From the NCBI RefSeq assembly GCF_039566955.1, contig NZ_CP154796.1:4340001-4404000 (forward strand): a DNA stretch of 64,000 bases, read 5' to 3'. The first letter of the stretch is position 1. Every line of letters starts with the position of its first letter. A model generated the notes under the pieces. That model made no database searches. It saw only the letters and a list, made by a program, of their open reading frames with translations, and was not told where the DNA came from. Positions 961 to 59,511 of this stretch are shown here, in pieces. The position numbers were made by a program, and so were the translations under genes. Source of the stretch: Micromonospora sp. DSM 45708. GTDB lineage: Bacteria > Actinomycetota > Actinomycetes > Mycobacteriales > Micromonosporaceae.

Positions 961-968
961 CCGTGCCC

Positions 969-1844: not shown

Positions 1845-1945
1845 CTTGGACGGAACTCTCTCTCGGGTTGATCGGAACTCGGCCGTCGTCGACGCGACCG
1901 ACAGAAGACCAACGATCCGGACAAGTCCCCAGATACGCGGCGGGC

Positions 1946-3070
1946 TCAGCGTCGGATGCCGGCCCAGTCGTGGTGGCGTCGCACCGTCGAGAGGATGAAG
2001 TCCACGACCCGCCGTGAGGTGTCCCGCACCTGGTAGTCGACCGGGCAGGGCACCCCCGCCGCGGTCACCTGGGCGGTGACCACCTCCACCGCCTCGACCA
2101 CCGACGGGGCGTCCAGGCCCGTCATCACGATGCCACCGGCGTCGAGCGCCTCCGGTCGTTCGATCGACTCGCGCAACGTCACGGCCGGAAAGCCGAGGAT
2201 CGCGGACTCCTCGCTGATCGTGCCGCTGTCGGACAGCGTGCAGCGGGCCTCGCGTTGCAGCCGGACGTAGTCGAACAGGCCGAACGGCTCGTGGAAGGCG
2301 ATCCCCTCCAGGGTGCTCGGGGCCGGTGACAGCGACTCCAGCCGCTTGCGGGTGCGGGGATGGGTCGAGACCAGCACCGGCAGCCGCCACCGGTCCCGGA
2401 CCGCGCGCAGGCAGTCCAGCAGCCGGGCGAGCCGCTCCGGGCGGTCGACGTTCTCCTCCCGGTGCGCGCTGACGAGGAAGTATCCGCCGGCGGTCAGCTC
2501 CATCCGACCGAGGACGGCGGACCGCTCGATGTCCGGGCGGTAGTGCTCCAGCACCTCCCGCATCGGCGACCCGGTGTGCAGGATCCGCCGCGGGTGCAGC
2601 CCTTCGGCGAGCAGGTTGCGCCGGGCGTGCTCGGTGTAGACCAGGTTGAAGTCCGCGACGTGGTCCACCACCCGCCGGTTGGTCTCCTCGGGGACGTTGA
2701 GGTCGAAGCAGCGGTTGCCCGCCTCCATGTGGTAGACCGGGACGCCCATCCGCCGGGCCATCAGCGCGGCGATGCAGCTGTTGGTGTCGCCCAGCACCAG
2801 CAGCGCGTCCGGTCGGACCTCGCGGATGACCTCCTCGGTGCCGGTCAGCACCCCACCGAGCACGCGGCCCAGCGAGGACGTGTCCACCCCGAGGTAGCGG
2901 TCGGGCTGGCGCAGCCGCAGCTCGGTGAAGAAGATCTCCGACAGCGTCAGGTCCCAGTTCTGGCCGGTGTGCACGAGCACGTGCTCCACGGTCCGGTCCA
3001 GTCGGTCGAGCACCCGGGACAACCGGATGATCTCGGGGCGGGTGCCCACCACGGTCATCACGCGCGTCAT
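1946..3070 (-). CDS. UDP-N-acetylglucosamine 2-epimerase family, WbpI/FnlC-like subclass
   Basis: Non-hydrolysing UDP-HexNAc 2-epimerase fold, 374 residues, with GTRPE at residues 9-13. The middle of the protein reads YHMEAGNRCFD...VPEETNRRVVDH and NLVYTEHARR. This resembles WbpI (UDP-2,3-diacetamido-glucuronate 2-epimerase) and FnlC/Cap5G more than classical WecB, which has VEAGLR and APT at these places. SAHREEN is present. The start at 3070 has GGGGGAC about 6 nt upstream. The gene is followed by the FkbM gene and is divergent from a GT4. It could finish a UDP-ManNAc(3NAc)A pathway together with the sugar enzymes at 25.7, 28-29 and 43-45 kb; plain UDP-GlcNAc/ManNAc epimerisation is the alternative. 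Confidence 0.85.
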   Translation of the reverse strand: MTRVMTVVGTRPEIIRLSRVLDRLDRTVEHVLVHTGQNWDLTLSEIFFTELRLRQPDRYLGVDTSSLGRVLGGVLTGTEEVIREVRPDALLVLGDTNSCIAALMARRMGVPVYHMEAGNRCFDLNVPEETNRRVVDHVADFNLVYTEHARRNLLAEGLHPRRILHTGSPMREVLEHYRPDIERSAVLGRMELTAGGYFLVSAHREENVDRPERLARLLDCLRAVRDRWRLPVLVSTHPRTRKRLESLSPAPSTLEGIAFHEPFGLFDYVRLQREARCTLSDSGTISEESAILGFPAVTLRESIERPEALDAGGIVMTGLDAPSVVEAVEVVTAQVTAAGVPCPVDYQVRDTSRRVVDFILSTVRRHHDWAGIRR

Positions 3071-3260
3071 GCTTCGTCCCCCGTCACGGCCCGGCGGCCT
3101 GCCACGGTCCAACGAGCCCACCGCCGGACGGGTTACTCCGGCTCGCGTTCGCGGGGCGCTCGCAACCCGTACCCCGACCGATTCGTTCACAGGGCGAGCA
3201 CGCCGGACTCCCCGGAACCGGGGAGGTGCCGGGTCGACCGGGCGGCACGGGGGGAATCTG

Positions 3261-4469
3261 GTGCGGGTCATCGTGACGATGGAGGCGCGTCTGCTGCGCA
3301 CCCCGGACGGCCGGGTCTGGACGCGGGGCGGTCCCGACCACACCACCTGGTCGCGCTACCTGTCGGTCTTCGACGAGGTCCGCATCGTCGCCCGGGTCCA
3401 GCCCACCGACGGGAAGCCGGTCGGCGCGAGCGCCGTGGACGGGCCCGGGGTGCACGTGTGGGCCGTGCCGTACTACGTCGGCCCGGGGCAGTACGTGTCC
3501 CGGCGGACGGAGGTCAGACGCGCCGTCGGCGCCGCGATCGGGCCGCACGACGCCTGCATCCTGCGCGTGCCGTCCCAGATCGGCACGCTCATGGCGCAGG
3601 AGCTGCGTCGACGCCGGCAGCCGTACGCGCTGGAGGTCATCGGCGACCCGTGGGAGGTGTTCGCGCCGGGCGTCGTCCGTCACCCGCTCCGGCCCTTCTT
3701 CCGCCGCCGGTTCGCCCGTCAGCTGGCCGGGCAGTGCCGGCACGCCGCGGCGGTGTCGTACGTGACGGCGCGGTCGCTCCAGGCCCGCTACCCCGCCGGC
3801 CCGACGACCGTGTCGATGTCCTGTTCCGACGTCGACCTGCCGGCCGAGGCGTTCGTCGCCGGGCCGCGGCCCGCCGCCGCCGACCTCACGCGGACGTGTC
3901 GGCTCGTCTCGGTCGGCTCCCTGGACCAGCTCTACAAGGGTGTGGACGTCCTCGTCGACGCCCTCGCCGTGCTCGCCGACCGGTCCGTCGACGTGCATCT
4001 GCGGCACGTGGGGGACGGACGGTTCCGGTCCCGGCTGGAGGAGCGGGCCGCCCGGTGCGGGGCACGGCAGCGGGTGACGTTCGTCGGCACGCTGCCCCCC
4101 GGGGACGCGGTGCGCGCGGAGTTCGATCGCGCCGACCTGCTCGTGATGCCGTCGCGTACCGAAGGGATGCCCCGTGCCCTCGTCGAGGGCATGGCCCGGG
4201 GCCTGCCGGCGATCGGGTCGGCCGTCGGCGGCATTCCGGAGGTCCTGCCCGCCGCCGACCTGGTGCCTCCGGGCGACCCCACCACGCTCGCCGACGCGAT
4301 CCAGCGGATGGTCACCGCGCCGGACCGGATGGCCGCGGCGTCCGCCCGGAACCTGGAAACCGCGCGGACGTTCGCCGCGGAGCGCCTGGCGGCCCGGCGC
4401 GACCGGTTCTACACCCTGGTCCGCGATGCCCGACGTCGACCCGACGAGGCGCGGATGGAACGCCTGTGA
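3261..4469 (+). CDS. Glycosyltransferase family 4
   Basis: GT-B fold retaining glycosyltransferase, about 402 residues. The C-terminal GT4 features are clear: a VSVGSLDQLYKGVDVLVDAL nucleotide-binding turn, FVGTLPPGDAVRAEFDRADLLVMPSRTEGMPRALVEGMARG with the EX7E-type glutamates, and GGIPEVLP. The GTG start at 3261 has GGGGGA about 7 nt upstream; longer forms are shadow sequence. It is divergent from the epimerase and converges with another GT4 at 4505. The acceptor and sugar are unknown. Confidence 0.87.
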   Translation: MRVIVTMEARLLRTPDGRVWTRGGPDHTTWSRYLSVFDEVRIVARVQPTDGKPVGASAVDGPGVHVWAVPYYVGPGQYVSRRTEVRRAVGAAIGPHDACILRVPSQIGTLMAQELRRRRQPYALEVIGDPWEVFAPGVVRHPLRPFFRRRFARQLAGQCRHAAAVSYVTARSLQARYPAGPTTVSMSCSDVDLPAEAFVAGPRPAAADLTRTCRLVSVGSLDQLYKGVDVLVDALAVLADRSVDVHLRHVGDGRFRSRLEERAARCGARQRVTFVGTLPPGDAVRAEFDRADLLVMPSRTEGMPRALVEGMARGLPAIGSAVGGIPEVLPAADLVPPGDPTTLADAIQRMVTAPDRMAAASARNLETARTFAAERLAARRDRFYTLVRDARRRPDEARMERL

Positions 4470-4504
4470 CGGTGCTCCGGCCGGGCGGGTCCGGTCGCCG
4501 CGGG

Positions 4505-5671
4505 CTACCGATCGGGCCCGGCCCCACGAGCGACGCCGGTCGGCATCCCGCCGACCGCTTCCAGGATCCGGTCCGCGTGGAACGCCGCGACGTCCTCCCG
4601 CTGCCACGCCAGTAGGGACTCCGGCCTGATCTGCACCGTCCGGGCGCGGAGTTGGGCGAGCAGGGCCAGCGCCAGAGCGGTGGCGTCCGGCGGCACCAGC
4701 AGCAGCCCCTCCCGCACGTGCCGGGCGACGGCCCGGGTGCCGCGATTGTCGACCACGACCACGGGCGTGCCGACCACGAGCGCCTCGGTGACGACCAGCG
4801 GGAACCCCTCCCGCAGGCTGGTCAGCAGCACCACGTCGGCCGCCGCCAGCTCGGCGGCCGGGTCGTCGGTCCACCCCGCGGGCACGATGCCCGCCTCCTC
4901 GGGCGGGGCCCACGACGGTTCGCGGGCGACGGTGGAACCGACGACCCGCAGTTCCAGATCCGGGCGCGTCTGCCGGGCCAGCCGCCACGCGGCGACGGCC
5001 AGATCGAGGTTCTTGTCGGGGGTCAGGCGACCCATGATCAGGACGCGCGGCGCCCGGTGCCCACCCTCATCCGCCCGCCGGCGCGCCGCGCGCAGCCCGA
5101 CCACGTCCACCCCGGCCCCGCCGCACGGGGCGAGCCGGACCTGGCTGCGCGGCGCGAGGCGACGGTACGACGCCTGGTCGTCCGGGTTCTCGGTGACGTA
5201 CCACGGGGTGAACCGCGCCGACGCGCTCTCCACCGCGGCGAAGATCCGCCCGGACCGGCCGGCCGCCCCGAAGAGCGTGCCGTGCACGACGGCGAGGTGT
5301 CGGGTCCGGGTGGCCCGGGCGACGACCCGGCCCAGCGCGATGGCGTACGGCGTGTGCAGGTGCAGCAACGCGGGCCGCTCGTCGCGGACGATCCGGGCCA
5401 GGTCCCGACCGGCGCGGACGAGGCCGCCGAGTCCGGCCCGCCGGAAGGGGGTGATCTCGTGGACCTCGTCGAAGCTGCGACGCAGCGACGGCGTGACGCT
5501 GCCGCGCCCGGCCACGGCGACCCGGCGGAACCCGTGCGACTCCAGTGCCCGGGAGACCGGGGCGACCACTCCCTCCAGCGTCAGGCCCAGCGCGGCGACG
5601 AACAGCACGGTGGGCGGCGGCGGGGCCACCGTCCGCCGCTCACCCGGCCGTGCACTGCCTCGAACCCGCAT
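4505..5671 (-). CDS. Glycosyltransferase family 4
   Basis: GT-B glycosyltransferase of about 388 residues. The N-terminal domain has VLFVAALGLTLEGVVAPVSRAL and HLHTPYAIALGRVVARA. The C-terminal domain has VLIMGRLTPDKNLDLAVAAW and ADVVLLTSLREGFPLVVTEALVVGTPVV, the donor-binding EX7E region. The start at 5671 (MRVRGS) has a GGGAAGGGA Shine-Dalgarno about 5 nt upstream. It is divergent from the GT4 at 5819 across a 147-bp intergenic region. The overall form resembles WcaI/WfgS-type capsule glycosyltransferases; specificity is unknown. Confidence 0.87.
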   Translation of the reverse strand: MRVRGSARPGERRTVAPPPPTVLFVAALGLTLEGVVAPVSRALESHGFRRVAVAGRGSVTPSLRRSFDEVHEITPFRRAGLGGLVRAGRDLARIVRDERPALLHLHTPYAIALGRVVARATRTRHLAVVHGTLFGAAGRSGRIFAAVESASARFTPWYVTENPDDQASYRRLAPRSQVRLAPCGGAGVDVVGLRAARRRADEGGHRAPRVLIMGRLTPDKNLDLAVAAWRLARQTRPDLELRVVGSTVAREPSWAPPEEAGIVPAGWTDDPAAELAAADVVLLTSLREGFPLVVTEALVVGTPVVVVDNRGTRAVARHVREGLLLVPPDATALALALLAQLRARTVQIRPESLLAWQREDVAAFHADRILEAVGGMPTGVARGAGPDR

Positions 5672-5818
5672 CCGGTCCCTTCCCTGTCTCGCGACGGCCC
5701 GTCCGACGACCGTCCCGGTCGTCGCGCCGCGTCGCTTGGGGTCAACGAACCACCGGGCGGGTGGTGATGCCGCGGACGGCCACCGCGACCTCCGCCCGGG
5801 GAGATCGTTGAGCACCAC

Positions 5819-7012
5819 ATGTCCGCCAGTCAGATCGGCACACCGCCGACCACCGGCCGCCGACCACCGGCGCGACCCCTCGCGGTCGCCCGCGTGCTGG
5901 GGTCGCTGGACACCGGCGGCACCGAGCTGAGAGCGCTGGAGATCGCTCCCCGGCTGCGGGAGGCCGGGGTGGTCACCCATTTCGTGACCATCACCGGTCG
6001 GCGGGGCGCCAACGCCGCGGCGGCCGAGCGGGCCGGCGCCCACGTCCACCCGTTGCCGCTCGACCCGTCGTTCCCCGTGCGTTTCGTCCGGCTCCTGCGG
6101 CGGCTCGGGATCCGCGCGGTCCACGCCGACGTGCACACCTTCTCGGGGGCGATCCTGCTGCTCGCCGCCATCGCTGGCGTGCCGGCCCGCATCGCCTACT
6201 TCCAGTCCGACGGCGACGGGTGGCCGGACACCGTGCGGCGCCGCGCCCAGCGCGCCGTGATGCGGAAGCTGATCTCGACGTTCGCCACCGACATCCGCGG
6301 GGTCGCTCCGGGCTCGTTGACCGGTGGCTACGGCCCGGCCTGGCCGTCGGATCCCCGCTGCCGGGTCCTGCCGACCGGGCCCGACGTGCGTCGGCTGCGC
6401 CGCCTCCCGCAGTCGGATCTGCGGGCCGAGGTGGGCGCGGCGCCCGAGTACCTGCTCTGCCTCTTCGTCGGTCGGCCCGATCCGGTCAAGCGCCGTCCGA
6501 TGCTGCCCCGGATCGTCGCCGCCCTGGAGGCGCGCGGCGTGCGGGCCCACGTCGTCATCGCGGGACCGCACGAGCGGGACGCCGACGAGGAGGTCCGGCG
6601 GACGGCGCGTACGCACCACGTCGAGGACCGGGTGCACCTGCTCGGTGCCCGCGACGACATCGGCGCGCTGCTGCGGCAGGCCGACGTGATGATCCATCCG
6701 GCGAGTCGGGAAGGTCTGCCCGGGGTGGTGCTCGAAGCGGTCGCGACCGGCACTCCGGTCGTCGCCACCGACCTGCCCGGCGTGCGGTACATCGACGACG
6801 AGCTGGGTGGGGTGTCCCTGGTGGATGTCGACGCGCCACCCGAGGTCTGGGCCGAGCGGGTGGTCTGCCTCGCGCCCGCCCCCGGCCGGGAACGCGACGT
6901 GGAGAGCGCGCTGCGCCGGTACGAGGCGAGCAGTTTCGCGCCCGAGGCGCTGCGGCGGGAGTTCCTGGCGATGTACCGGGCGCCGGTCGACGACGGTGCC
7001 GCCCACCACTGA
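5819..7012 (+). CDS. Glycosyltransferase family 4
   Basis: GT-B glycosyltransferase, 397 residues. It starts with a typical VARVLGSLDTGGTELRALEIAPRLREAG donor-domain entry, where the GGTE turn is a GT4 hallmark. The C-terminal part carries LCLFVGRPDPVKRR, VHLLGARDDIGALLRQADVMIHPASREGLPGVVLEAVATGTPVVATDLPG. The ATG at 5819 has no strong ribosome-binding site. It is the last gene of the first glycan block; NAD kinase follows 49 bp downstream on the same strand but is probably an independent core gene. The acceptor is unknown. Confidence 0.87.
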   Translation: MSASQIGTPPTTGRRPPARPLAVARVLGSLDTGGTELRALEIAPRLREAGVVTHFVTITGRRGANAAAAERAGAHVHPLPLDPSFPVRFVRLLRRLGIRAVHADVHTFSGAILLLAAIAGVPARIAYFQSDGDGWPDTVRRRAQRAVMRKLISTFATDIRGVAPGSLTGGYGPAWPSDPRCRVLPTGPDVRRLRRLPQSDLRAEVGAAPEYLLCLFVGRPDPVKRRPMLPRIVAALEARGVRAHVVIAGPHERDADEEVRRTARTHHVEDRVHLLGARDDIGALLRQADVMIHPASREGLPGVVLEAVATGTPVVATDLPGVRYIDDELGGVSLVDVDAPPEVWAERVVCLAPAPGRERDVESALRRYEASSFAPEALRREFLAMYRAPVDDGAAHH

Positions 7013-7061
7013 ACGCCGTCTTCGCCCGACGGACCACCCCCTGGTGTGGTGAGCTGTATCG

Positions 7062-7991
7062 GTGGCGGGGTACGTGTTCGGGCTGGTGCTGCACCCGACC
7101 CGGGACGTCTCCGAGGTGGTGGAGATGGTCGTGGGCTGGGCCACCCGGCACGGCAAGACGCTTGCCGTACGCGCCGAGGACCGGCACCGGGTGCCGACCT
7201 CGGTGGAGGCGGTGGCCGCCGACGAGCTGGCCGCGCACTGCGACGCGTTGATCAGCATCGGCGGGGACGGCACGATGCTCGGCGCGCTGCGGCTGGCGGT
7301 CAGGGCCCCGAAGCCGGTGCTCGGGGTCAACCTGGGCCGGGTCGGTTTCCTGGTCGAGGTGCAGCCACCGGAGCTGCCCCGGGCGCTGGAACGGCTGGTG
7401 GCGCACGACTTCACCGTCGAGTCGCACGCCTGCCTGGCCTGTGACGTGTGCGGCGACGACGTGGTGGCGTTCAACGACATCGCGCTGGTCCGGCAGCCGG
7501 GGGCCGGCTTCGTCACCGCCACGCTCGCGGTGGACGGCCAGCGGTACGGCTACTACCGGTGCGACGCGCTGGTGGTGAGCACACCGACCGGCTCGACCGC
7601 GTACAGCTACGCCGCCGGCGGTCCGTTGGTCTCGCCGGCGACGGAGGCGCTGGTGGTGACGCCGTCGGCGCCGATGGCCGGGATCTCCCGGTCCGTGCTG
7701 CTCTCCCCGCACGAGAGCGTCCACCTGGAGCTGCGCCCGGACTCGGCGCCGGTGGCGGTGGAGATGGACGGGCTGCTGATCCGGCAGGCGGCGACCGAGG
7801 GCTCGGTGCACGTGCGGTACGTCCCCGACGCCGGTCGGGTGGTCCGCCTCGACCCACGCCGCTACCAGGAGCGCAATCAGCTCAAGCTGAGCCTGCTGGA
7901 CCTGCCGCTGCTGCCCGAGCAGCTCCGCGAGCTGCTGCCGGACGGGCTGCGGGAGCAGCTCAACCGACGTGAGCTGCCCCCGTACCGCTGA
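7062..7991 (+). CDS. nadK: NAD kinase
   Basis: ATP-dependent NAD kinase making NADP, 309 residues. The diagnostic GGDGT motif occurs in LISIGGDGTMLGAL, with FNDIALV (the conserved N-[ED] pair) and the glycine-rich STPTGSTAYSYAAGGP motif. Actinobacteria often carry two NAD kinases; this one has a distinctive extra C-terminal segment rich in Leu/Arg (LPLLPEQLRELLPDGLREQL). The start is GTG at 7062. It converges with pgm with only 3 bp between the stop codons. Cytosolic core metabolism; no reason to link it to the glycan genes. Confidence 0.93.
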   Translation: MAGYVFGLVLHPTRDVSEVVEMVVGWATRHGKTLAVRAEDRHRVPTSVEAVAADELAAHCDALISIGGDGTMLGALRLAVRAPKPVLGVNLGRVGFLVEVQPPELPRALERLVAHDFTVESHACLACDVCGDDVVAFNDIALVRQPGAGFVTATLAVDGQRYGYYRCDALVVSTPTGSTAYSYAAGGPLVSPATEALVVTPSAPMAGISRSVLLSPHESVHLELRPDSAPVAVEMDGLLIRQAATEGSVHVRYVPDAGRVVRLDPRRYQERNQLKLSLLDLPLLPEQLRELLPDGLREQLNRRELPPYR

Positions 7992-31108: not shown

Positions 31109-32721
31109 GCGCCCACCTCCACCGACGCGGGCGCCGGTGCCGCGACCGGCGTGACCGGTCGGGCTGGCGCGTCGGGCAGCAGCCGGGTGTAGACGTCGTC
31201 GAGCACCCGCGCCTGCGCCTCCCAGGTCCAGCCGGCCAGCAGGCCCGGCCGGTCGTACGCGGCGCGGTACCGCGCCGGATCGGCGAGCACCGCGGTGACC
31301 GCCCGGACGAAGTCGGCCACGTCCTCGGCGCGGAACACCTCGCCCTGGCCGGTCTCCCGGACAGTCTCGGCCATGGTCCGCACGTCGGAGACGACAAGCG
31401 GCAGGCCGGCGTGTGAATACTCGAAGAACTTGGTGATCAGCGCGATCTCGTGGTTCGGCCAGTGCTGGATCGGGATGACGCCGACCTGCGCGCCGGCCAG
31501 GAACCGGACCACCTGGTGGTGCGGCACGTACGGCAGCACGTGCAACCGGTCCGCCACGCCCAGCTCGTCGGCGCGGGTGACCAGGCCCCGGACGTACGCC
31601 GAGGTGGGCTTGTTGACCACCAGGGCGACGTGCGCGCCGGGCAGCCGGGGCAGCGCCTCGACCAGCACGCCCAGCCCCCGCTTGGCGGCGGCCACCCCGC
31701 TGTAGACCAGCAGCGGCGTCTCCGGCCCGAGCCCGCAGCGGGCGCGGATGTCCGGTGCCGGCCCGGTCGGGTCGGCCGGCAGCTCGTCGACCGCGGGCGC
31801 GTTGAGCACGACGGCCGGGCGCTCGGCCAGCCCGTGCTCGTCGCGCAGCAGGTCGGCCAGGCCGCCGGAGACGGTGGTGGTGGCGTCCGCGTACGGCACG
31901 TACTCCCGCTCGTGCGCCACGTTGCCGGGCAGCCAGCGGGCGTTGTCCCGCCACGGCTGCACACCGGGGAGGTATTCGTGGGCGTCCCACAGCAGCGCGA
32001 TCCGCCGGCCCCGGGCGGCGGCCCGGATCTTCGCGCGGGCCCCGACGCCGAGCATCCGGAAGTCGTTGGCGTGGATCAGGTCCGGTGCCAGTTCGTCGAC
32101 GACCGGGCCGTAGGCCAGCTCGTAGTCCCACAGGCCGGGCTCCAGCCGGCGCCACGCGCCGTCGCCGCGCAGCTTCCGCCAGAACGCGGTGTAGGCGCGG
32201 TCCCAGGGGCCGTCCAGCTTGCGACCCTTGCGGGCGCGGGTGAGCTGGCGGTTGCGGAACCCGACCCACCGGCGGGTCAGGCCGGCCAGCTTCTCCTCGG
32301 CGCGCAGCGTGGCCCAGGGCAGCCCGCCGGGGCGGCCGGCGCCGGAGTCGCGGGCCGCGGTGGTCAGCGCCGCCCGGCGGACGGCCAGGTCCGCGCGCCA
32401 CGCCCGGACCGTCTGGGTGCGGTGCGCGGCGAGGCCGCTCGGCGGGTACGCCAGCGGATGCCGCAGCCAGGCGCGGCGGAACTCGTGCCGGCGACGGGAC
32501 AGCGGCTCGGCCATGGGGATCAGGCGCACCTCGGCGGCGCCGAGCCGCCAGCTCTGCGGCTGGCCCACCGGCGCGCGCCCGAGCAGGACGACGTCCCAGC
32601 CGGCGTCGGCGGCGGACCGCGCCGCCTTCTGCACCCGGGAGTCCCCGATGACCCCGTTGTCCACCAGCATGACCACCCGTCCCCGGGGGCCCGCCGCTGC
32701 GGTCGTGCCGTCAGATCCCAT
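31105..32721 (-). CDS. Glycosyltransferase family 4 (paralogue of the one at 39.8 kb)
   Basis: GT-B enzyme, 538 residues, longer than typical GT4 because of an insertion of about 100 residues after the first beta strands (ADLAVRRAALTTAARD...WRKLRGDGAWRRLEPGLWDYELAYGPVVDELAPDLIHANDFRM). The start of the conserved region is GRVVMLVDNGVIGDSRVQKAARSAADAGWDVVLLG. The donor domain has LLVYSGVAAAKRGLGVLVEAL and IPIQHWPNHEIALITKFFEYSHAGLPLVVSD. Start ATG 32721 matches the start of its paralogue. First gene of the operon with the GT2 and dehydrogenase. Confidence 0.87.
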   Translation of the reverse strand: MGSDGTTAAAGPRGRVVMLVDNGVIGDSRVQKAARSAADAGWDVVLLGRAPVGQPQSWRLGAAEVRLIPMAEPLSRRRHEFRRAWLRHPLAYPPSGLAAHRTQTVRAWRADLAVRRAALTTAARDSGAGRPGGLPWATLRAEEKLAGLTRRWVGFRNRQLTRARKGRKLDGPWDRAYTAFWRKLRGDGAWRRLEPGLWDYELAYGPVVDELAPDLIHANDFRMLGVGARAKIRAAARGRRIALLWDAHEYLPGVQPWRDNARWLPGNVAHEREYVPYADATTTVSGGLADLLRDEHGLAERPAVVLNAPAVDELPADPTGPAPDIRARCGLGPETPLLVYSGVAAAKRGLGVLVEALPRLPGAHVALVVNKPTSAYVRGLVTRADELGVADRLHVLPYVPHHQVVRFLAGAQVGVIPIQHWPNHEIALITKFFEYSHAGLPLVVSDVRTMAETVRETGQGEVFRAEDVADFVRAVTAVLADPARYRAAYDRPGLLAGWTWEAQARVLDDVYTRLLPDAPARPVTPVAAPAPASVEVGA

Positions 32722-32948
32722 CCCTGCCCGTTTCGTCGTCGCCAGCACCGCGCCCGCGGACCCGAGCGAGTCTACGACAACGGTTCCGGCCGCCACGCCC
32801 GCCGCCGTCGGCGGTCCGTGACCTGTCGCGCCGATTGCTACCCTCCATGCTGTTCAACGACCGGCGCTCGCCCCGGGTCGTCGCCGGGCCGGCGGTAGGC
32901 CGCCCGCCCGCGGCCCGCGTGCCGCCGGATCACTCCAGGTCAGCGCGG

Positions 32949-34137
32949 ATGGATCAGACAATGGACGTGGTGACGACCGAGGAACCGAGCCGCCCGGCGT
33001 CGGCAGCGCCCGACCCGCCCCGGCCCACGCCCGCCGGGCGGCTGCGCCACGCCGCCCGCGCCGCGCTGCCCGCGCTGGCGGTCTACGCCGTGATCCGTCT
33101 GATCGGGCTGGTGACCGTCTGGGTCTGGGCCGGCAACGTGGGGAGCAACCCGGTCGAGCAGCTCACCCGGGCCGACGGCGGCTGGTACCTCGCCATCGCG
33201 CGGCACGGGTACGACGGGTACGAGAAGGCGCAGAGCAACATGGCCTTCTTCCCGCTCTACCCGGGCCTGTCCGCGGGCCTGGACCGGCTCTCCCCGCTCA
33301 GCCCACGCGAGTCGGCCCTGCTGGTGGCGTGGCTGGCCGGGTTGGCCGCCGCGTGGGGGCTGTTCGCGATCGGCGCGTACCTGCACGACCGGCGTACCGG
33401 CGTGCTGCTCGCCGCGCTCTGGGCGGCGATGCCGCACGCCGTGGTGGAGTCGATGGGCTACAGCGAGAGCCTGTTCACCGCGCTCGCCGCGTGGACGCTG
33501 TACGCGCTGCTGCGCCGGCGCTGGGTCACCGCCGGGGTGGTCTGCCTGTTCGCCGGCCTGACCCGGCCGACCGCCTCGTCCCTGATCCCGGTGGTCGGGC
33601 TGGCCGCGCTGCTCGCGGTGGCCCGGCGGCGGGACGGCTGGCGGCCGTACGCGGCGCTGCTGCTCGCGCCCGCCGGCTGGCTGGCTGGCGTACCTGGCCT
33701 GGGTGGGGGCGCGGACCGGGCGGCCGGACGGCTGGTTCCACATCCAGTCGGCCGGCTGGGGCACCTCGTTCGACTTCGGCGTCTACACCGTCGACCGGGG
33801 GCAGCAGGCGCTGGTGCAGGTGGCCGCGCTGCCGCTGCTGGTGGTGACCGTGGTGGCGTTGGTGTCGCTGATGTTCTTCGTGCTGAGCGTGCTCGACCGG
33901 CAGCCCTGGCAACTGCTGCTCTACAGCGGCCTGCTGCTGGTGACCACGCTCGGCGCGGCCGGCTACTACCACTCCAAGGCGCGGTTCCTGCTGCCGGCGT
34001 TCCCGCTGCTGCTGCCGGCGGCCGTGGGCCTGGCCCGGGCCGGTCGGGCCAAGGCCGCCACGGTGCTGGTGACGCTCGTCGCGTTCTCCACCTACTTCGG
34101 CGGCTACCTGCTGCTGATCTGGACGAAGTCGCCCTGA
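32949..34137 (+). pseudogene. PIG-V-like mannosyltransferase gene broken (or switched) by a 4-bp CTGG insertion
   Basis: Polytopic GT-C protein. The 5' part reads ADGGWYLAIARHGYDGY and MAFFPLYPG, the PIG-V/GPI-mannosyltransferase-like signature. The frame changes at 33677-33688, where three CTGG copies occur. With two copies the frame continues smoothly as GWLAYLAWVGARTGRPDGWFH into the second half (to the stop at 34137), giving about 394 residues with a complete set of helices. As read, the first frame runs on to 34169 with a meaningless Arg/Gly-rich tail. So the gene is a recent frameshift, a phase-variable switch or a sequencing error. Start ATG 32949; 32961 and 32847 are alternatives. Codon bias is normal in both halves. 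It is divergent from the GT4 operon. Confidence 0.8.
33677..33688 (+). repeat. Three tandem CTGG tetranucleotides at the frameshift site
   Basis: CTGG x3, preceded by GG, inside the PIG-V-like gene. Two copies would keep the coding frame; three shift it. Such short repeats can change length by slipped-strand mispairing, although three copies is few. Confidence 0.85.
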
Positions 34138-34158
34138 CCGCCGCCGCCGGGCGGACGG

Positions 34159-36000
34159 TCAGCGGGTGAACGGCCGGACGTCCCAGAGCCACACGTCGTC
34201 GACCCGCCGGCCGGGGCCGTACAGCGCGTCGAGCACGACCTTCAGGTCGTCGTGGCGGCGGGCCCCCCGGTCCGGCAGCGCCACCGCGTCGGCCTTCCAG
34301 TACCGCACGTCGGCGCGGGCCTGGGCGATGTCGGCCGGTCCGACCGCGGTGTCCCGTTCGCCCCGGGACACGGCGGTGAGCAGCTTGGCGGTGGGCTGCG
34401 GGTCGACGCCCCACCGCCCGGTCGCGTCGGTGGCGGAGACCGGCCCGAGGAAGTAGCCCTCGGGCACCGCGAAGCCGGCCACCGCGGCGGAACTCCAGTA
34501 CAGCGACGTCATGCCGTTGACCGGCACGGGCACCAGGGTGCGGCCGGGTGCGACGTGGTCGCGCCAGGCGCCGCCGGTGACGAACTCCGGCACCGGCGTC
34601 CGGCCCCGCGCCTCCAGCGGCACCGGCAGCACCGGCAGCAGCGCGGCGGCCACCGCGACGGCCCCGACCCGGGCGGCCAGTCGCCCGGACGGCTCGTCCC
34701 GCCGGGCGGCGAGCCGGTCGCCGGCCACGGCCAGCAGGACGCCGAGCGCCACGGTGGTGATCAGCGCGAACCGGGCCACCACCACGGAGTCGAACACGGG
34801 CAGGTCCTGCACCAGCGCGAACGGCGCCGGGATGTCGGTGCGGCGGGTGCCGGACGTCCAGGTGGTGCCGATCGAGAACAGCGCCGAGACCAGGCCGACG
34901 ACGCCGAGCACCCGGGCGGTGACGTCCCGCCGCAGCCACCACAGCGCGCCGGCCGCGAGCACCAGCAGCGACCAGCCGTAGAAGCTGGCCTGCTCGGTGG
35001 TGTTCGGCGCCCAGCCGACCGCGCTGGTCGGCCCGCCGGCCACCGACTGGGTGGCGAACCTGACGTACGAGCCGAGCTTGAGGGCGTAGATGTCCGGGGT
35101 GCCCGGGTGGCCCACCCGGTGCTGTGGCCCGGCGAACTGCATCCAGAGCGGGTACGCCGCCGCGGCCCCCACCAGCACGGCGGTGATCGCCAGCCCCGGC
35201 AGCATCGGGCGCCAGCGGCGCACCGCGTCGCGGGGTCGGACCGCCAGGTAGGCCAGGACCAGCATCAGGCAGCCGAGCGCGGTGAGGAAGAGGATCTCCA
35301 GGCTCACGAAGAACTGGGCCACCACCAGCCCGCCCAGCACCAGGCCGTCGCGGACCACGTGCCCGCCCCGGGACAGCGCGACCACCCGCCAGACGATGAA
35401 CGGCACCAGCCACTGCGCGGTGATGTGCGGGTGGCCGTTGCTGTGCGAGACCAGCGCCGGGGCGAAGGCGCAGAACAGCCCGCCGACGAACGCGGCGGCC
35501 CGGGAGTCGACCAGGTGCCGGGAGAGCACGTGGTACCAGGCGTATCCGGTGCCGGCCAGGTTCAGCGTGATGAACAGCAGGTAGGAGAAGGACGCGCCGA
35601 AGAGCAGGGTGACCGGGGCGAGCACCAGCCCGGGAAGTTGGAGCCCGACGTTGGTCATCAGGTTGACCCCGGTCGGGGCGTTCTGGAGCGTGGTGAAGAA
35701 CGGGTTCTCCAGGTGGCTGACCGCGTGCGCCGCGTACGCCAGCATCCACTCGTTGAAGCCCTGGTCGTTGGGGCGGCTGCCGAGCAGTCGCCCGCCGGGG
35801 TCGCGCCAACCCCGGGCGGTGACCCAGAACGCGCCGGCCAGGAACACCAGCGCGACCACCGCGTCGACCCGGGACCACCGCCGGCGGCCCGGACGCCCCT
35901 CGGCCTCGGGTCCCGGACCGGGGGTGTCGGCCCCCGCCTCCTGGGCGTCCCCGGCGGGGACGGGCTCACGATCGCGGGTGTCGGGCGCGGGCGAGGTCAT
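34159..36000 (-). CDS. Large multi-spanning membrane protein, GT-C-like, unknown
   Basis: 613 residues with about 12 hydrophobic helices between residues 45 and 480, and a C-terminal extracytoplasmic domain of about 130 residues (EFVTGGAWRDHVAPGRTLVPVPVNG...RRHDDLKVVLDALYGPGRRVDDVWLWDVRPF). The first loop carries SRPNDQGFNEWMLAYAAHAVSHLENPFFTTLQNAPTGVNLMTN, with an Asp in the GT-C catalytic place. The overall arrangement resembles YfhO-type or ArnT-like glycosyltransferases, but I cannot name the family. The start ATG at 36000 is clear. It converges with the frameshifted PIG-V-like gene 21 bp away and is divergent from the GT pair at 36135. Confidence 0.7.
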   Translation of the reverse strand: MTSPAPDTRDREPVPAGDAQEAGADTPGPGPEAEGRPGRRRWSRVDAVVALVFLAGAFWVTARGWRDPGGRLLGSRPNDQGFNEWMLAYAAHAVSHLENPFFTTLQNAPTGVNLMTNVGLQLPGLVLAPVTLLFGASFSYLLFITLNLAGTGYAWYHVLSRHLVDSRAAAFVGGLFCAFAPALVSHSNGHPHITAQWLVPFIVWRVVALSRGGHVVRDGLVLGGLVVAQFFVSLEILFLTALGCLMLVLAYLAVRPRDAVRRWRPMLPGLAITAVLVGAAAAYPLWMQFAGPQHRVGHPGTPDIYALKLGSYVRFATQSVAGGPTSAVGWAPNTTEQASFYGWSLLVLAAGALWWLRRDVTARVLGVVGLVSALFSIGTTWTSGTRRTDIPAPFALVQDLPVFDSVVVARFALITTVALGVLLAVAGDRLAARRDEPSGRLAARVGAVAVAAALLPVLPVPLEARGRTPVPEFVTGGAWRDHVAPGRTLVPVPVNGMTSLYWSSAAVAGFAVPEGYFLGPVSATDATGRWGVDPQPTAKLLTAVSRGERDTAVGPADIAQARADVRYWKADAVALPDRGARRHDDLKVVLDALYGPGRRVDDVWLWDVRPFTR

Positions 36001-39787: not shown

Positions 39788-41407
39788 TCAGCGCGAGGTG
39801 CCCGCGAGCTCCTGCTCGTCCGCGGACCGCCGGGACGCCGGAGGGTGTGCCCCACCGGAGCGGGGAGCGCCCCGCAGCGAGGTGTAGACCTCGTCGAGGA
39901 CGCGGGCCTGCGCCTCCCACGTCCAGCCCTCCAGCAGGCCCGGCTTGTCGTAGGCGGCCCGGTAGCGCTGCGGGTCGGCCAGCACGGCCCGCACGGCCCG
40001 CGCGTAGTCGGTGAGGTCCTCGGCGGTGAACACCTCGCCCTGGCCGGTGGCCCGCGCGGTCTGCGCCATCGTCTTCACGTCGCTGACCACGATGGGCAGG
40101 CGGGCGTGCGAGTACTCCAGGAACTTCGTGATCAGCGCCAGCTCGTGGTTGGGCTTGTGGTGGATCGGGATGACCCCGGCGTCCGCGCCGGACAGGAACG
40201 GCACCACCTGCCAGTGCGCCACGTACGGCAGCAGGTGCACGCGGTCCCCGACGCCCAGCTCGACGGCCCGCTCCCGCAACCGCTCGGAGAACGTGTTGTC
40301 GCCGTTCGGGTTCATCGTCACGAACGCGACGTGCACGTCGGGCAGTTCCGGCAGCGCCTCCACCATGATCTGGCAGCCCCGGCTCGGGTTCACCGCGCCG
40401 GAGTAGACGAGCACCGGCGTCCGGTCGTCCACGCCGCACAGCGCCCGCAGGTCCGGCACCTCGCCCTCGGCCTCGGCCGGCGGGGCCATCGGCGCGTTGA
40501 GCACCACGGCCGGCCGCTCGGGCAGGGCATGCGTCTCCTGGAGCAGGTCGGCGAGCGTGTCGGAGACCGTCACCACCGCGTCCGGGTAGGCGGCGTACTC
40601 GGCCGTGTAGGCGATCTGGGCCGGCAGCCAGCGCGGGTTGTCGGCCCGGCCGGTGATGCCGCCGACGAACTCGTGGGCGTCCCAGACCAGCTTGGTGTGC
40701 CGGCCGGCGGCGCGGGCCCGCAGCGTCGCCCGCGCCCCGATGCCGAGCATCCGGAAGTCGTTGGCGTGGATGATGTCCGGCTTCAGCTCGTCGATCGCGG
40801 TCCGGAACGCCAGCTCGAAGTCCCACAGGCCCGGGTCCAGCCGACGCCAGGCGCGGTTGCCCAGCACGCTCTGCCAGAGCCGGATGGGCAGCCGGGTGAG
40901 CGGCGCCTCCGGGTCGAGCTGGGCCTTGCGCAGCCGGTGGGTCTCCCCGTTGCGGAACCGCACCCAGCGGGCCAGCGCCGTGGCGGCGGCGCGGGACGGC
41001 AACTGGGCCGCGCGTCCCACGGTGGCGGGCAGCCCACCGCCGAGCGCCCGGGTGCGGACCCGGCGCTCGTAGAGGTCGGCCTGCCAGGCCTTGATCTCCT
41101 GGACCCGGTAGGCGGCCCGGCTGGTCGACGCGTACGCCAGCGGCCGGCGCAGCGACCGGCGGTACTCGCGGGGCAGCCGGTGCAGCGGCTTGGGCACGCG
41201 CAGCAGTCGCACCTCCGCGTCGCCGATCCGCCAGGTGTCCACCTCGGAGCGGGCGTTGCGGATGCCGAGCAGGACGACCTCCCAGCCGGCGTCCGCCGCG
41301 GACCGGGCGGCCTTCTGCACCCGGGAGTCGCCGTGGACCCCGTTGTCGACCAGCATCACCACCCGTCCCCGGGTCGGTCGGGCATCGGTGTTCGAGCCAG
41401 CTTGCAT
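39788..41407 (-). CDS. Glycosyltransferase family 4 (paralogue of the one at 31.1 kb)
   Basis: GT-B enzyme of 539 residues alignable over its whole length with the protein at 31105: GRVVMLVDNGVHGDSRVQKAARSAADAGWEVVLLG at the start, RLDPGLWDFELAFRTAIDELKPDIIHANDFRMLGIGARA in the middle, and VLVYSGAVNPSRGCQIMVEAL...IPIHHKPNHELALITKFLEYSHARLPIVVSDVKTMAQTARATGQGEVF at the end. The start at 41407 has GAGGAG about 9 nt upstream. Last gene of the DegT-MocA-GT operon, 41 bp after the GT at 41449. Specificity unknown; the two copies probably use related donors or acceptors. Confidence 0.87.
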   Translation of the reverse strand: MQAGSNTDARPTRGRVVMLVDNGVHGDSRVQKAARSAADAGWEVVLLGIRNARSEVDTWRIGDAEVRLLRVPKPLHRLPREYRRSLRRPLAYASTSRAAYRVQEIKAWQADLYERRVRTRALGGGLPATVGRAAQLPSRAAATALARWVRFRNGETHRLRKAQLDPEAPLTRLPIRLWQSVLGNRAWRRLDPGLWDFELAFRTAIDELKPDIIHANDFRMLGIGARATLRARAAGRHTKLVWDAHEFVGGITGRADNPRWLPAQIAYTAEYAAYPDAVVTVSDTLADLLQETHALPERPAVVLNAPMAPPAEAEGEVPDLRALCGVDDRTPVLVYSGAVNPSRGCQIMVEALPELPDVHVAFVTMNPNGDNTFSERLRERAVELGVGDRVHLLPYVAHWQVVPFLSGADAGVIPIHHKPNHELALITKFLEYSHARLPIVVSDVKTMAQTARATGQGEVFTAEDLTDYARAVRAVLADPQRYRAAYDKPGLLEGWTWEAQARVLDEVYTSLRGAPRSGGAHPPASRRSADEQELAGTSR

Positions 41408-56149: not shown

Positions 56150-57358
56150 TCAGTCCGGCCGGCGCCGCCCGGCGTACTCGATCGAACGGTCCGGCTCCCC
56201 GGCGGACGCCGCGCCGGTGTCGTCGGCGGCCGAACGCGGTGCGGGCACGCCGGGTGCCGGCGCAGCGGCGGCCGGGCCGCGACGGGCTCGGCGCGACGGG
56301 CCGAGGCGGCGCATCATCGGCTCCTCCACCCAGCGGTGCAGCGCCGCCGCGAGCGCCAGGGTGAGCAGCAGGAAGCCGAGCACCGCGAGCGGGCCCCGCC
56401 ACCCGCGCAGCCCGGTCCCCCAGTGGCCGGTGAGCCGCAGCACGGTCATCATGACCAGCACGTGGACCAGGTAGAACGCGAACGAGACCTCACCGAGCCA
56501 GACCATCGGCCGGGACCGCCACGGGGTCCGCCGGCCCCGCACGTCGGCGTCCGCCGCCGCGGCGATGACCACCAGGTACGCGACGGCGAGCAGCGCCGCC
56601 CAGAACTCCGCCCGGATCCACAGCGCGGCGACCACCCAGGTGGCGACGAAGATCAGGCTGGCCGAGGTCAGCCCGGGGCCGCGCCAGCGGTCACGGCGCA
56701 TCAGCTCGGCCGCCGCCGCCCCCATCCAGAACTCGATCGAGCGGGTGACCGGGAAGATCTGGGTGAACCACCAGCGCTGCTCCTCGGGCACCAGGTGCTG
56801 GCCGGGCCAGAGCGCCAGGATGAGCAGCGGCGCGGCGACCAGCGCGGCCCGGAGCACGCCGGTACGCGCCCGGCGCAGCCACGGCACCACCAGCGGCAGG
56901 CACAGGTAGAAGGCCAGCTCGCAGGAGAGCGACCAGCTCACGTTGTTGATGCTGTAGAAGTAGCCGTTGACCGGGATCCACGCCTGGACCAGGAAGAGGT
57001 TGCCGATCGCCGCCCAGGGCAGGACCGGGTCGGCGAACCAGGCCGCCACGGCCAGCGCCGCCAGGAACGTCACCACGTGGTTCGGGTAGATCTTGGCCGC
57101 CCGGCGGCGCAGGAACGTCCACCCCGACTCGCCACCCCGGTACGACCAGACCAGCACGAATCCACTCAGGATGAAGAAGAACTCGACGCCGGAGAGCCCC
57201 AGGCTGAAGACCTTGCCCATCACCGTCTTCCACTGCGGCTCCGCGATGATCTGCATGGTGCCCGCGTGGAAGCCGAAGACCAACAGGGCCCCGATCCACC
57301 GCAGCCCGGTCAGCGACGGCAGACGCGGAGCACGGGTGGTGGTCGGGGCACTGGTCAT
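56150..57358 (-). CDS. OafA-type membrane O-acyltransferase (acyltransferase family 3)
   Basis: 402 residues, about ten membrane helices. RLPSLTGLRWIGALLVFGFHAG carries the catalytic region of the family (Arg and His), LSGVEFFFILSGFVLVWSY is its hallmark, and RRRAAKIYPNHVVTFL contains the conserved RxxKIxP-type block. NNVSWSLSCELAFYLCLP is another family motif. The C-terminal 50 residues are soluble and low complexity. Start ATG 57358. It would O-acylate an envelope glycan from a cytoplasmic acyl donor. It is divergent from the pyruvyltransferase gene, so both decorate glycans. Confidence 0.9.
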   Translation of the reverse strand: MTSAPTTTRAPRLPSLTGLRWIGALLVFGFHAGTMQIIAEPQWKTVMGKVFSLGLSGVEFFFILSGFVLVWSYRGGESGWTFLRRRAAKIYPNHVVTFLAALAVAAWFADPVLPWAAIGNLFLVQAWIPVNGYFYSINNVSWSLSCELAFYLCLPLVVPWLRRARTGVLRAALVAAPLLILALWPGQHLVPEEQRWWFTQIFPVTRSIEFWMGAAAAELMRRDRWRGPGLTSASLIFVATWVVAALWIRAEFWAALLAVAYLVVIAAAADADVRGRRTPWRSRPMVWLGEVSFAFYLVHVLVMMTVLRLTGHWGTGLRGWRGPLAVLGFLLLTLALAAALHRWVEEPMMRRLGPSRRARRGPAAAAPAPGVPAPRSAADDTGAASAGEPDRSIEYAGRRRPD

Positions 57359-57503
57359 CCCGGGCACCTTACCGGGTCGCAGGGCGCGGGTTCCGGCACG
57401 GCGACGTCCGGGCCGGTGCCCGCGGACGGCGGATAGGATTTCCGTTCCTGCCCGGCGGGGCCCCACCGGGCCCGCCGGACCCGTACGGAAGGTGAGCAAC
57501 CGG

Positions 57504-58829
57504 ATGCACCAGCGGATCCTCCTCCGCGCCCGCAAGGGCCCGTTCGACGTCCTGACGCCCGAGGAGACCTTCGCCGGCAACTGGATCAGCGACAACACCG
57601 GCAACCTGGTCTTCAGCCACGCCGCACACAAGCTGCTGGCCACCTCCACGGCGGAGGTCACGTCGACCCGGAAGCTCGCCGACCCGCGCGACGCCGACGA
57701 GATCAACGAACGGTACGACGTCTTCGTCGTACCGTTGGCCAACGCGTTCCGGCGCAGCTTCATCAACCGCCTCGAACCGATGACCCGGCTGATCGAGCGG
57801 CTGAAGATCCCGGTGGTGGTCCTCGGCGTCGGCGTGCAGACGAACGTCGACGGCGACCGGGAGTACCTGCGCCAGATCGACGAGCCGGTGAGCGCGTTCT
57901 GCCGGGCGGTGCTCGACCGCTCGCACAGCATCGGGGTGCGCGGCGAGATCACCGAGAGCTACCTGCGTACGCTCGGCTTCTCCGCGGTGGAGCAGATCGG
58001 CTGCCCGTCGATGTTCCTGCACGGGGACACGTTCACGCTGGAGAAGACCCGGCCGGAGCTGACCACCGACGACCGGATCGCGCTGACCATCTCCCCCTAC
58101 GTCTCCTCGATGGCCCCGGTCGTCCGCCGCCACCGGGAGCGCTACCCGAACCTGTGCTACGTGCCGCAGGACCTGCGCACGCTCGGCACGCTGCTCTACG
58201 GCGACGCGCCCGAGCACCGGGGCAAGAGCAGCGAGATGCCGCTGCACACCTCGCACCCGCTCTTCGTCGAGGACAAGGTGCGGATGTTCGTCGACCCGTG
58301 GACCTGGATGTCGCACCTGTCCGGCTTCGACTTCAACTTCGGCACCCGGATCCACGGCACCATCACGGCGCTGATCGCCGGCACCCCCGGCTACCTCTTC
58401 GCGCACGACTCGCGCACCCTGGAGCTGGCCCGCTACTTCGGCATCCCGCACCGGATCATGCGGGACGTGCCGGCCGACGTCGACGCCGCCGACCTCTACG
58501 CGGAGGCCGACTACACCTCGCTGACCGGGGGCCACAAGGCCCGCTTCGACACCATCACCGCGTTCCTGGCCAAGCACGACCTCGGCACCTCGTTCGCCGA
58601 CGGCGACAGCGCCGCGGCGTTCGACAGGCGGGTCGCGGAGACGGAGTTCCCGCCGGCCGTGCGACCGGCCGCCGCCACCCCGCCGGCCGAGCTGCTGACC
58701 CGCATCCAGCGGCTCAGTGACGAGAACCGCCGGCTCGCCGACACCGTGCGCACGCTGCGCGCGCAGGGGCTGCGCGAGCGGATCAAGCAGGCCGTCCCGG
58801 ACCCGGTCCGCCGTCTGCTGCGACGTTGA
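57504..58829 (+). CDS. Polysaccharide pyruvyl transferase family protein
   Basis: 441 residues. The family fold is shown by FAGNWISDNTGNLVFSHAAHKLL, DVFVVPLANAFRRSFINRLEPMTRLIERLKIPVVVLGVGVQTN, SIGVRGEITESYLRTLGF, and GFDFNFGTRIHGTITALIAGTPGYLFAHDSRTLELARYFGIPH, in which RIHG is the conserved catalytic region. Ends with a coiled segment (LLTRIQRLSDENRRLADTVRTLRAQG). A ribosome-binding GAAGGTGAG precedes ATG 57504; TAGGAT at 57434-57439 may be the -10. It transfers pyruvate from PEP to sugars; target unknown. Confidence 0.88.
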   Translation: MHQRILLRARKGPFDVLTPEETFAGNWISDNTGNLVFSHAAHKLLATSTAEVTSTRKLADPRDADEINERYDVFVVPLANAFRRSFINRLEPMTRLIERLKIPVVVLGVGVQTNVDGDREYLRQIDEPVSAFCRAVLDRSHSIGVRGEITESYLRTLGFSAVEQIGCPSMFLHGDTFTLEKTRPELTTDDRIALTISPYVSSMAPVVRRHRERYPNLCYVPQDLRTLGTLLYGDAPEHRGKSSEMPLHTSHPLFVEDKVRMFVDPWTWMSHLSGFDFNFGTRIHGTITALIAGTPGYLFAHDSRTLELARYFGIPHRIMRDVPADVDAADLYAEADYTSLTGGHKARFDTITAFLAKHDLGTSFADGDSAAAFDRRVAETEFPPAVRPAAATPPAELLTRIQRLSDENRRLADTVRTLRAQGLRERIKQAVPDPVRRLLRR

Positions 58830-58859
58830 TCCGTCGTACGCCTGTTCGATCGCCCGGGG

Positions 58860-58865
58860 TACGAT
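58860..58865 (+). promoter_or_regulatory. -10 element of alkB, leaderless
   Basis: TACGAT ends 7 nt before the GTG at 58873; no Shine-Dalgarno is present. This supports GTG 58873 over longer upstream frames as the start. Confidence 0.45.
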
Positions 58866-58872
58866 CGCCTGC

Positions 58873-59511
58873 GTGTCCGACGTCGCGTACCAGCCCTCGA
58901 TGCTCGACCTGGCCGAGCACGGCCCGACCCTGGGTCCGCTCGCGGGCCAGGTGCGTCGGCACGAGCTGAGCCGGGGCGCGTGGGTCGACCACCTGCCCGG
59001 CTGGGTGCGGGGCTCCGACGCGGTGCTCGACACGCTCCGGCACGACGTGCCGTGGCGGGCCGAGCGTCGCGCCATGTACGACACCACCGTCGACGTGCCG
59101 CGCCTGCTGTGCTGGTACGCCGGCGGCCGACCGCTGCCGCACCCGGTGCTCGCCGCCGCCCGCGACGCCCTCACCCGGCACTACGCGCCCGAGTTGGGCG
59201 AGCCGTTCGTCACCGCCGGCCTGTGCCTCTACCGCGACGGCCGGGACAGCGTCGCCTGGCACGGCGACACCAAGGGCCGCTCCGCGCACACCGACACCAT
59301 GGTGGCGATCGTCTCGTTCGGCTCGCCCCGCCCGCTGCTGCTGCGCCCCCGGGGCGGGGGCGGCCCCGGCCTGCGCTTTCCGCTCGGCCACGGCGACCTG
59401 GTGGTGATGGGCGGCTCCTGCCAACGCACCTGGGAGCACGCCGTGCCGAAGACCACCCGCCCGGTCGGTCCCCGGGTCAGCGTCCAGTTCCGCCCCGCCG
59501 GGGTGGCCTGA
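58873..59511 (+). CDS. alkB: AlkB-type alpha-ketoglutarate-dependent dioxygenase
   Basis: Fe(II)/2OG dioxygenase for alkylated nucleic acids, 212 residues. The metal ligands are His130 and Asp132 in SVAWHGDTKGRS and His189 in QRTWEHAVPK. The 2OG-binding Arg201 and Arg207 are in GPRVSVQFRP. PRLLCWYAGG and FVTAGLCLYRDG are the other family blocks. It is preceded by a leaderless-type -10. The two Arg are the second-shell pair of AlkB proteins. Which lesions it repairs is not predictable. Confidence 0.92.
   Translation: MSDVAYQPSMLDLAEHGPTLGPLAGQVRRHELSRGAWVDHLPGWVRGSDAVLDTLRHDVPWRAERRAMYDTTVDVPRLLCWYAGGRPLPHPVLAAARDALTRHYAPELGEPFVTAGLCLYRDGRDSVAWHGDTKGRSAHTDTMVAIVSFGSPRPLLLRPRGGGGPGLRFPLGHGDLVVMGGSCQRTWEHAVPKTTRPVGPRVSVQFRPAGVA

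What the first reader, a model, noticed from the sequence alone, without database searches (positions are those of the whole stretch)
32949..34137. CTGG repeat splits a PIG-V-like mannosyltransferase: phase switch, fresh mutation or error
The two halves of one membrane enzyme are in different frames, joined exactly at three tandem CTGG copies (33677-33688). With two copies the protein reads through as GWLAYLAWVGARTGRP. Both halves keep normal codon use and conserved motifs, so the loss is very recent or reversible. In an envelope glycan locus, on/off switching of a glycosyltransferase by repeat-length change would be notable in an actinomycete.
Basis: seen in the sequence. Interest (0 to 1): 0.72.

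Follow-up and report, generated by a model that had tools for sequence, protein, structure and literature searches.

The report
Slippage frameshift in a Micromonospora glycosyltransferase
One sequenced Micromonospora carries an extra four-letter CTGG unit that knocks a membrane sugar-transfer gene out of frame; relatives that were examined read this place in frame, and it looks like an ordinary recent slippage mutation (or, less likely, a sequencing error) and not an evolved on/off switch.

Summary
Three CTGG units stand at 33677-33688, and the halves of one gene (32949-33686, about 33690-34137) lie in different frames. The window is from a Micromonospora (7,016,307-base single contig). The window thus carries a derived 4-base tandem duplication, at what is in RP3T the gene's longest period-4 tract, as slippage would leave it. 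The genome has NucS and no MutS_I match; NucS is reported not to correct indels. Neither half shows decay, so the event looks recent. A phase switch is poorly supported: only 15 of 51 homologues have two or more CTGG units there, the units are codons of a conserved GWL(A/G) motif, a homologue with three units is in frame, and a 15-base tract is expected 0.48 times per 64 kb by chance. Tract-length phase variation in actinomycetes is already in print. Reads or sister strains, not available here, would decide between mutation and error.

The parts
32949..33686 (+). N-terminal half of a GT-C membrane glycosyltransferase (residues 1 to about 245), with the invariant Asp of the DG motif (D76 in RP3T numbering)
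   Evidence: Open frame; 94% identity to RP3T over 246 residues; invariant columns; GC3 0.97
33675..33689 (+). Pure period-4 tract GGCTGGCTGGCTGGC (three full CTGG units at 33677-33688); one unit more than in the nearest relative, G102
33690..34137 (+). C-terminal part of the same enzyme, in the +1 frame (first listed start codon in this frame GTG 33703), ending with a stop at 34135-34137
   Evidence: (91.7% identity, RP3T residues 227-394); GC3 0.99
33690..34169 (+). Out-of-frame tail that the N half would acquire, ending at the stop 34167-34169
   Evidence: Frame read (ORF 32835..34169)

Best explanation
A recent 4-base tandem duplication (CTGG, two to three units) arose by strand slippage during replication in a GT-C glycosyltransferase gene of an envelope-glycan locus. 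It shifts the frame inside the predicted helix 232-255, so that the N half (with the invariant Asp) gets a foreign tail and the C half is not translated in register. The gene is most likely off in the sequenced isolate. The duplication could in principle revert by the same slippage, presumably rarely with three units. Shown: the sequence, the state of the relatives, the place of the cut in the predicted fold, the lack of decay. Inferred: slippage as the cause, loss of activity, the glycan role.
For: All 49 other Micromonospora genomes whose copy was fetched (of 50 with a DNA match at E 1e-60 or better) cross the site in one frame; 48 of them go on in that frame to about the end of the gene, and G050 is broken elsewhere. 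In RP3T the site is the longest period-4 tract of the gene, 11 bases. Window against RP3T and against G087, the +4 at the tract is the only indel that leaves a net frame change away from the ends of a convincing gene call; of 40 other gene calls, 30 (against RP3T) and 29 (against G087) align in one frame over at least 95% of their length. No decay: window branch 7 synonymous and 7 non-synonymous changes, RP3T branch 4 and 7, unresolved 2 and 4. NucS_C present (E 3.1e-41), no MutS_I match; NucS is described as unable to correct indels (PMC8228993, abstract and passages seen). Model of the RP3T protein: mean pLDDT 90.2, helix 232-255 over the cut.
Against: No reads and no second strain of the species were available, so an assembly error is not excluded. 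The substitution test rests on 31 codon differences and is weak. Period-5 to period-8 tracts of similar or greater length exist in the gene (up to 17 bases, period 8), so this was not the only slippage-prone place. One other gene call (57093-58829) changes frame against both relatives at about residue 90-130; I take this for a wrongly called start (74-77% identity before, 94-96% after, with later start codons), but did not prove it. Loss of function is not tested.
Confidence: 0.72

Rival explanations
1. Sequencing or assembly error: the isolate really has two CTGG units and an intact gene.
For: The site is in frame in each of the 49 other fetched genomes and both halves are undecayed, as an intact gene would be. 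No reads could be seen.
Against: A clean gain of one 4-base unit, not a homopolymer slip; no other convincing core frame break in the compared gene calls, with the doubtful case 57093-58829 told; single contig, completeness 100.
Confidence: 0.21
2. Phase-variable contingency locus: CTGG copy number turns the enzyme on and off reversibly.
For: A frame-breaking tandem repeat in a likely surface-glycan gene without decay; no MutS_I match; phase variation by tract length is known in actinomycetes (PMC4365076 passages; PMC11868660 passages).
Against: Tract not conserved: within the aligned 17 codons 35 of 51 homologues have one CTGG, 14 two in tandem, 1 three, 1 none. The homologue with three (L037, G025) is in frame, because its extra unit comes from a GCT codon in place of GCC and not from added length. 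No gap in the 17 residues in any of the 51. Switching rate is said to depend on repeat number (table entries and a reference title in PMC11868660), and three is few. A 15-base tract is near chance expectation.
Confidence: 0.05
3. Programmed +1 ribosomal frameshift or split protein: the halves still give a working enzyme.
For: The frame-0 reading stays open for about 160 codons past the site, so ribosomes are not stopped there.
Against: The fetched homologues encode the protein in one frame; no stop codon stands at the tract in frame 0; the cut lies within a predicted helix.
Confidence: 0.02

Closest known systems
GT-C membrane glycosyltransferases (ArnT, OST/PglB, Pmt4, ALG12, AftA/AftB, EmbC, PimE, GPI mannosyltransferases)
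   Different: 9-16% identity in the 50 rows shown; several GT-C families tie; donor and acceptor unknown; no solved relative found by sequence beyond chance-level hits
pglX of Streptomyces coelicolor (phase-variable G tract)
   Same: Actinomycete gene switched by tract-length change (PMC4365076 passages)
   Different: A G tract, seen as 8 or 7 residues, with switching reported at 1e-2 to 1e-4; here a tetranucleotide with three units and no evidence of switching
glpK and other frameshift indels of Mycobacterium tuberculosis (phase variation, frameshift scars)
   Same: Small indels silence genes and may be reversed by a later indel (abstract and passages of PMC8339072; passages of PMC11868660 and PMC12817950)
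   Different: Seen across many isolates; PMC11868660 (passage) adds that homopolymer indels found by one survey there were slower than most phase-variable genes and not shown to be reversible. Here there is one genome only
Tetranucleotide contingency genes of Haemophilus influenzae
   Same: Unit of four bases in a coding tract
   Different: Rate set by tract length (title of De Bolle et al. 2000 seen in a reference list); that those tracts are long arrays is recalled; here three units

Membership tests
Simple-sequence-repeat phase-variable gene | Repeat change shifts the reading frame | tested here: met
   Three units out of frame in the window, two units in frame in RP3T
Simple-sequence-repeat phase-variable gene | Tract longer than expected by chance | tested here: not met
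   Period-4 tracts of 15 bases or more: 1 seen, 0.48 expected per 64 kb
Simple-sequence-repeat phase-variable gene | Tract kept among relatives and variable in length | tested here: not met
   36 of 51 homologues have one CTGG or none in the aligned stretch and no row has a gap there; one genome per species, so variation within a species was not seen
Simple-sequence-repeat phase-variable gene | High-frequency reversible switching in a clone | not testable with these tools
   No reads or colonies
GT-C glycosyltransferase | GT-C fold over most of the protein | tested here: met
GT-C glycosyltransferase | Invariant acidic residue near the N terminus | tested here: met
   D76 invariant in 51 homologues; its catalytic role is recalled, not tested
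PIG-V mannosyltransferase (PF04188) | Profile match above the family cut-off | tested here: inconclusive
   11 of 51 homologues match at E 0.01 or better, best 3.2e-5, cut-off not shown; neither window half nor RP3T is listed with it

The most novel reading that the evidence does not exclude
The three-unit state is one side of a slow, reversible switch by which Micromonospora populations, lacking MutS-type repair of indels, lose and regain an envelope sugar, for example under phage attack, from a tract that arises by chance from the codons of a conserved GWLA motif.
Probability: 0.05. Interest if true: 0.5.

Novelty: already known. Interest (0 to 1): 0.14.

Why it matters
Mainly as a caution: the isolate is probably mutant for one envelope glycosyltransferase, so its envelope may not be typical of its species, and annotation may split or discard the gene. 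It also shows how a short chance repeat made by ordinary codons can look like a switch, and how a comparison with relatives tells the two apart. If switching were shown, it would add a tetranucleotide case to the tract-length cases known in actinomycetes.

Tried and rejected
Phase switch: tested by tract conservation, copy number against frame, and chance expectation, and not supported. Long CTGG arrays (5-8 units) in seven other Micromonospora genomes were looked at as possible true coding switches: five (L073, L074, L075, L077, L078) lie outside the frames with convincing composition; for L076 no convincing frame was found in the stretch and L079 is unclear. These seven came from a listing that was cut off, so longer arrays elsewhere may have been missed. 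Paralogue as a replacement: the own genome has only a weak further match (E 2.1e-5). Sister strains: the genome set holds one genome per species, so none could be compared. A protein-level survey of the genus failed.

Limits: loci come from DNA similarity, so diverged copies are missed; 51 of 160 genus genomes had a best match at E 1e-60 or better by my count of the table; besides the window's own I fetched 49 of the other 50 (not G020), and second copies in G035, G039 and G095 were not examined; the least similar (46-52% protein identity: L069-L072) may be paralogues. Alignment A1 (51 rows: 43 from the genus, 8) left out own L015; L002, L004, L005, L006 and L016, which match the same proteins as rows kept; and L022, L030, L031, L043, L044 and L057. 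Of these all but L015 read the site in one frame (L031 has one stop, right after the start of its match; L057 ends at residue 342). Gene calls are by composition and some starts or calls are wrong. The ten exceptions against RP3T are three calls wholly outside, and one cut by, the fetched stretch, one 5' end, two frame changes in the 5' part (57093-58829, 58717-59511), and three calls with a stop in RP3T (at residues 3, 36 and, in a doubtful call 4505-7522, 392).

Full report
What is there. The window is from a Micromonospora chromosome (one contig of 7,016,307 bases; window = 4340001-4404000; the five closest of the 13 named relatives are Micromonospora). Three CTGG units stand at 33677-33688 within a 15-base pure period-4 tract at 33675-33689. 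The frame with ATG 32949 runs through the tract to a stop at 34167-34169; the rest of the enzyme is in the +1 frame and stops at 34137. Both halves have the codon-position composition of real genes.

Which state is ancestral. A DNA search of 160 Micromonospora genomes, own included, found the gene in 51 at E 1e-60 or better (counted from its table). I obtained the copy from 49 of the 50 others. All 49 cross the site in one frame. One of the 49, G050, is broken elsewhere: its match ends at residue 342, and a piece matching the end of the gene lies about 57 kb away on the other strand. The window's insertion is therefore derived and, in this sample, unique.

Why slippage. In RP3T the site is an 11-base GGCT tract, the longest period-4 tract of the gene; the gene also holds tracts of other periods of 10-17 bases. 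The genome has the NucS C-terminal domain and no MutS_I match; in 14 control genomes the two searches rang in 7 and 11. NucS repair is described as unable to correct indels (PMC8228993, abstract and passages).

How recent. Between window and RP3T the N half (242 codons) has dN 0.031 and dS 0.050, the C half (145 codons) dN 0.015 and dS 0.028. With G087 as outgroup, the window branch carries 7 synonymous and 7 non-synonymous changes, the RP3T branch 4 and 7, and 2 and 4 are unresolved, 31 in all. Against RP3T and G087 no further frame-breaking indel lies in the gene, and neither half has a stop. RP3T against G087 also has a high dN/dS (about 0.5 and 0.4 in the two parts), so the gene evolves fast in general and the test is weak, but nothing suggests old decay.

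Error or mutation. In the 38.6 kb block aligned to RP3T and the 33.8 kb block aligned to G087 there are many indels not divisible by three, but by position they lie between gene calls, at their ends, or in clusters that sum to whole codons; the +4 at the tract is the exception in both. By protein, 32 of 42 queries (the two target halves and 40 other gene calls, so 30 of 40) align to RP3T, and 31 of 42 (29 of 40) to G087, in one frame over at least 95% of their length. The exceptions are calls outside or cut by the fetched stretch, without close counterpart, with 5' ends that look over-extended, or doubtful calls; 57093-58829 is the one that I could not settle. Right of about 52300 the alignments hold many small indels, mostly where I have no convincing gene call. 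A generally poor assembly is unlikely, but reads are needed.

Not a switch by design. In 51 homologues the aligned 17 residues have no gap; 35 have one CTGG in that stretch, 14 two in tandem, 1 three and 1 none. The units are the codons of GWL(A/G): GGC TGG CTG GCG. The homologue with three units (L037) has them through GCT in place of GCC and is in frame, so copy number and frame are not tied. Period-4 tracts of 15 bases or more are expected 0.48 times per 64 kb, 1 seen. CTGGCTGGCTGG occurs in 135 of 160 genus genomes; in the own genome at 1 place against 15 for the reversed control pattern. Of seven longer arrays in other genomes, five lie outside convincing coding frames and two are unclear.

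Literature. Phase variation by tract length in actinomycetes is in print: the pglX G tract (PMC4365076, passages), glpK and other Mycobacterium tuberculosis loci (PMC11868660 passages, PMC8339072 and PMC12817950 abstracts and passages). A search for Micromonospora with phase variation gave three papers; in one (PMC12570475, the one passage seen) some isolates are said to be perhaps mixed or phase-varying, with no locus named; the other two I saw only in the listing, where each names Micromonospora once.

Verdict. A real observation with an ordinary cause: most likely one recent slippage frameshift in an envelope glycosyltransferase gene that is patchily present in the genus.

Noticed in passing
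L057 (G050:C2:3125500-3127500) and G050:C2:3183995-3184145: The homologue in G050 is broken near residue 342, and a piece matching the end of the gene lies about 57 kb away on the opposite strand, as an inversion could leave it: apparently a second, independent loss of this gene.
   Followed up: partly
L073-L079 (G012, G004, G044, G035, G019, G007, G020): CTGG/CCAG arrays of 5-8 units occur in other Micromonospora genomes; five of the seven lie outside convincing coding frames, L076 and L079 are unclear.
   Followed up: partly
L056 (G158:C1:1430400-1433800): Two adjacent copies of the glycosyltransferase gene in one genome (matches at 1430784-1431970 and 1432187-1433356).
   Followed up: no
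window 31179-32687 and 39874-41373: Two group 1 glycosyltransferase genes, both on the - strand, on either side of the gene in question; each also matches the other's counterpart in G102 and G087 at about 72% DNA identity, so they look like an old duplication.
   Followed up: no
window 1-7044: In G087 no good counterpart at the same place, although the fetched stretch ran 5.8 kb further; for G102 the fetched stretch ends at window 3186, so the first part is not tested there.
   Followed up: no
window 57093-58829: This gene call changes frame against both G102 and G087 at about residue 90-130; probably a wrongly called start, but a second frameshift is not excluded.
   Followed up: partly
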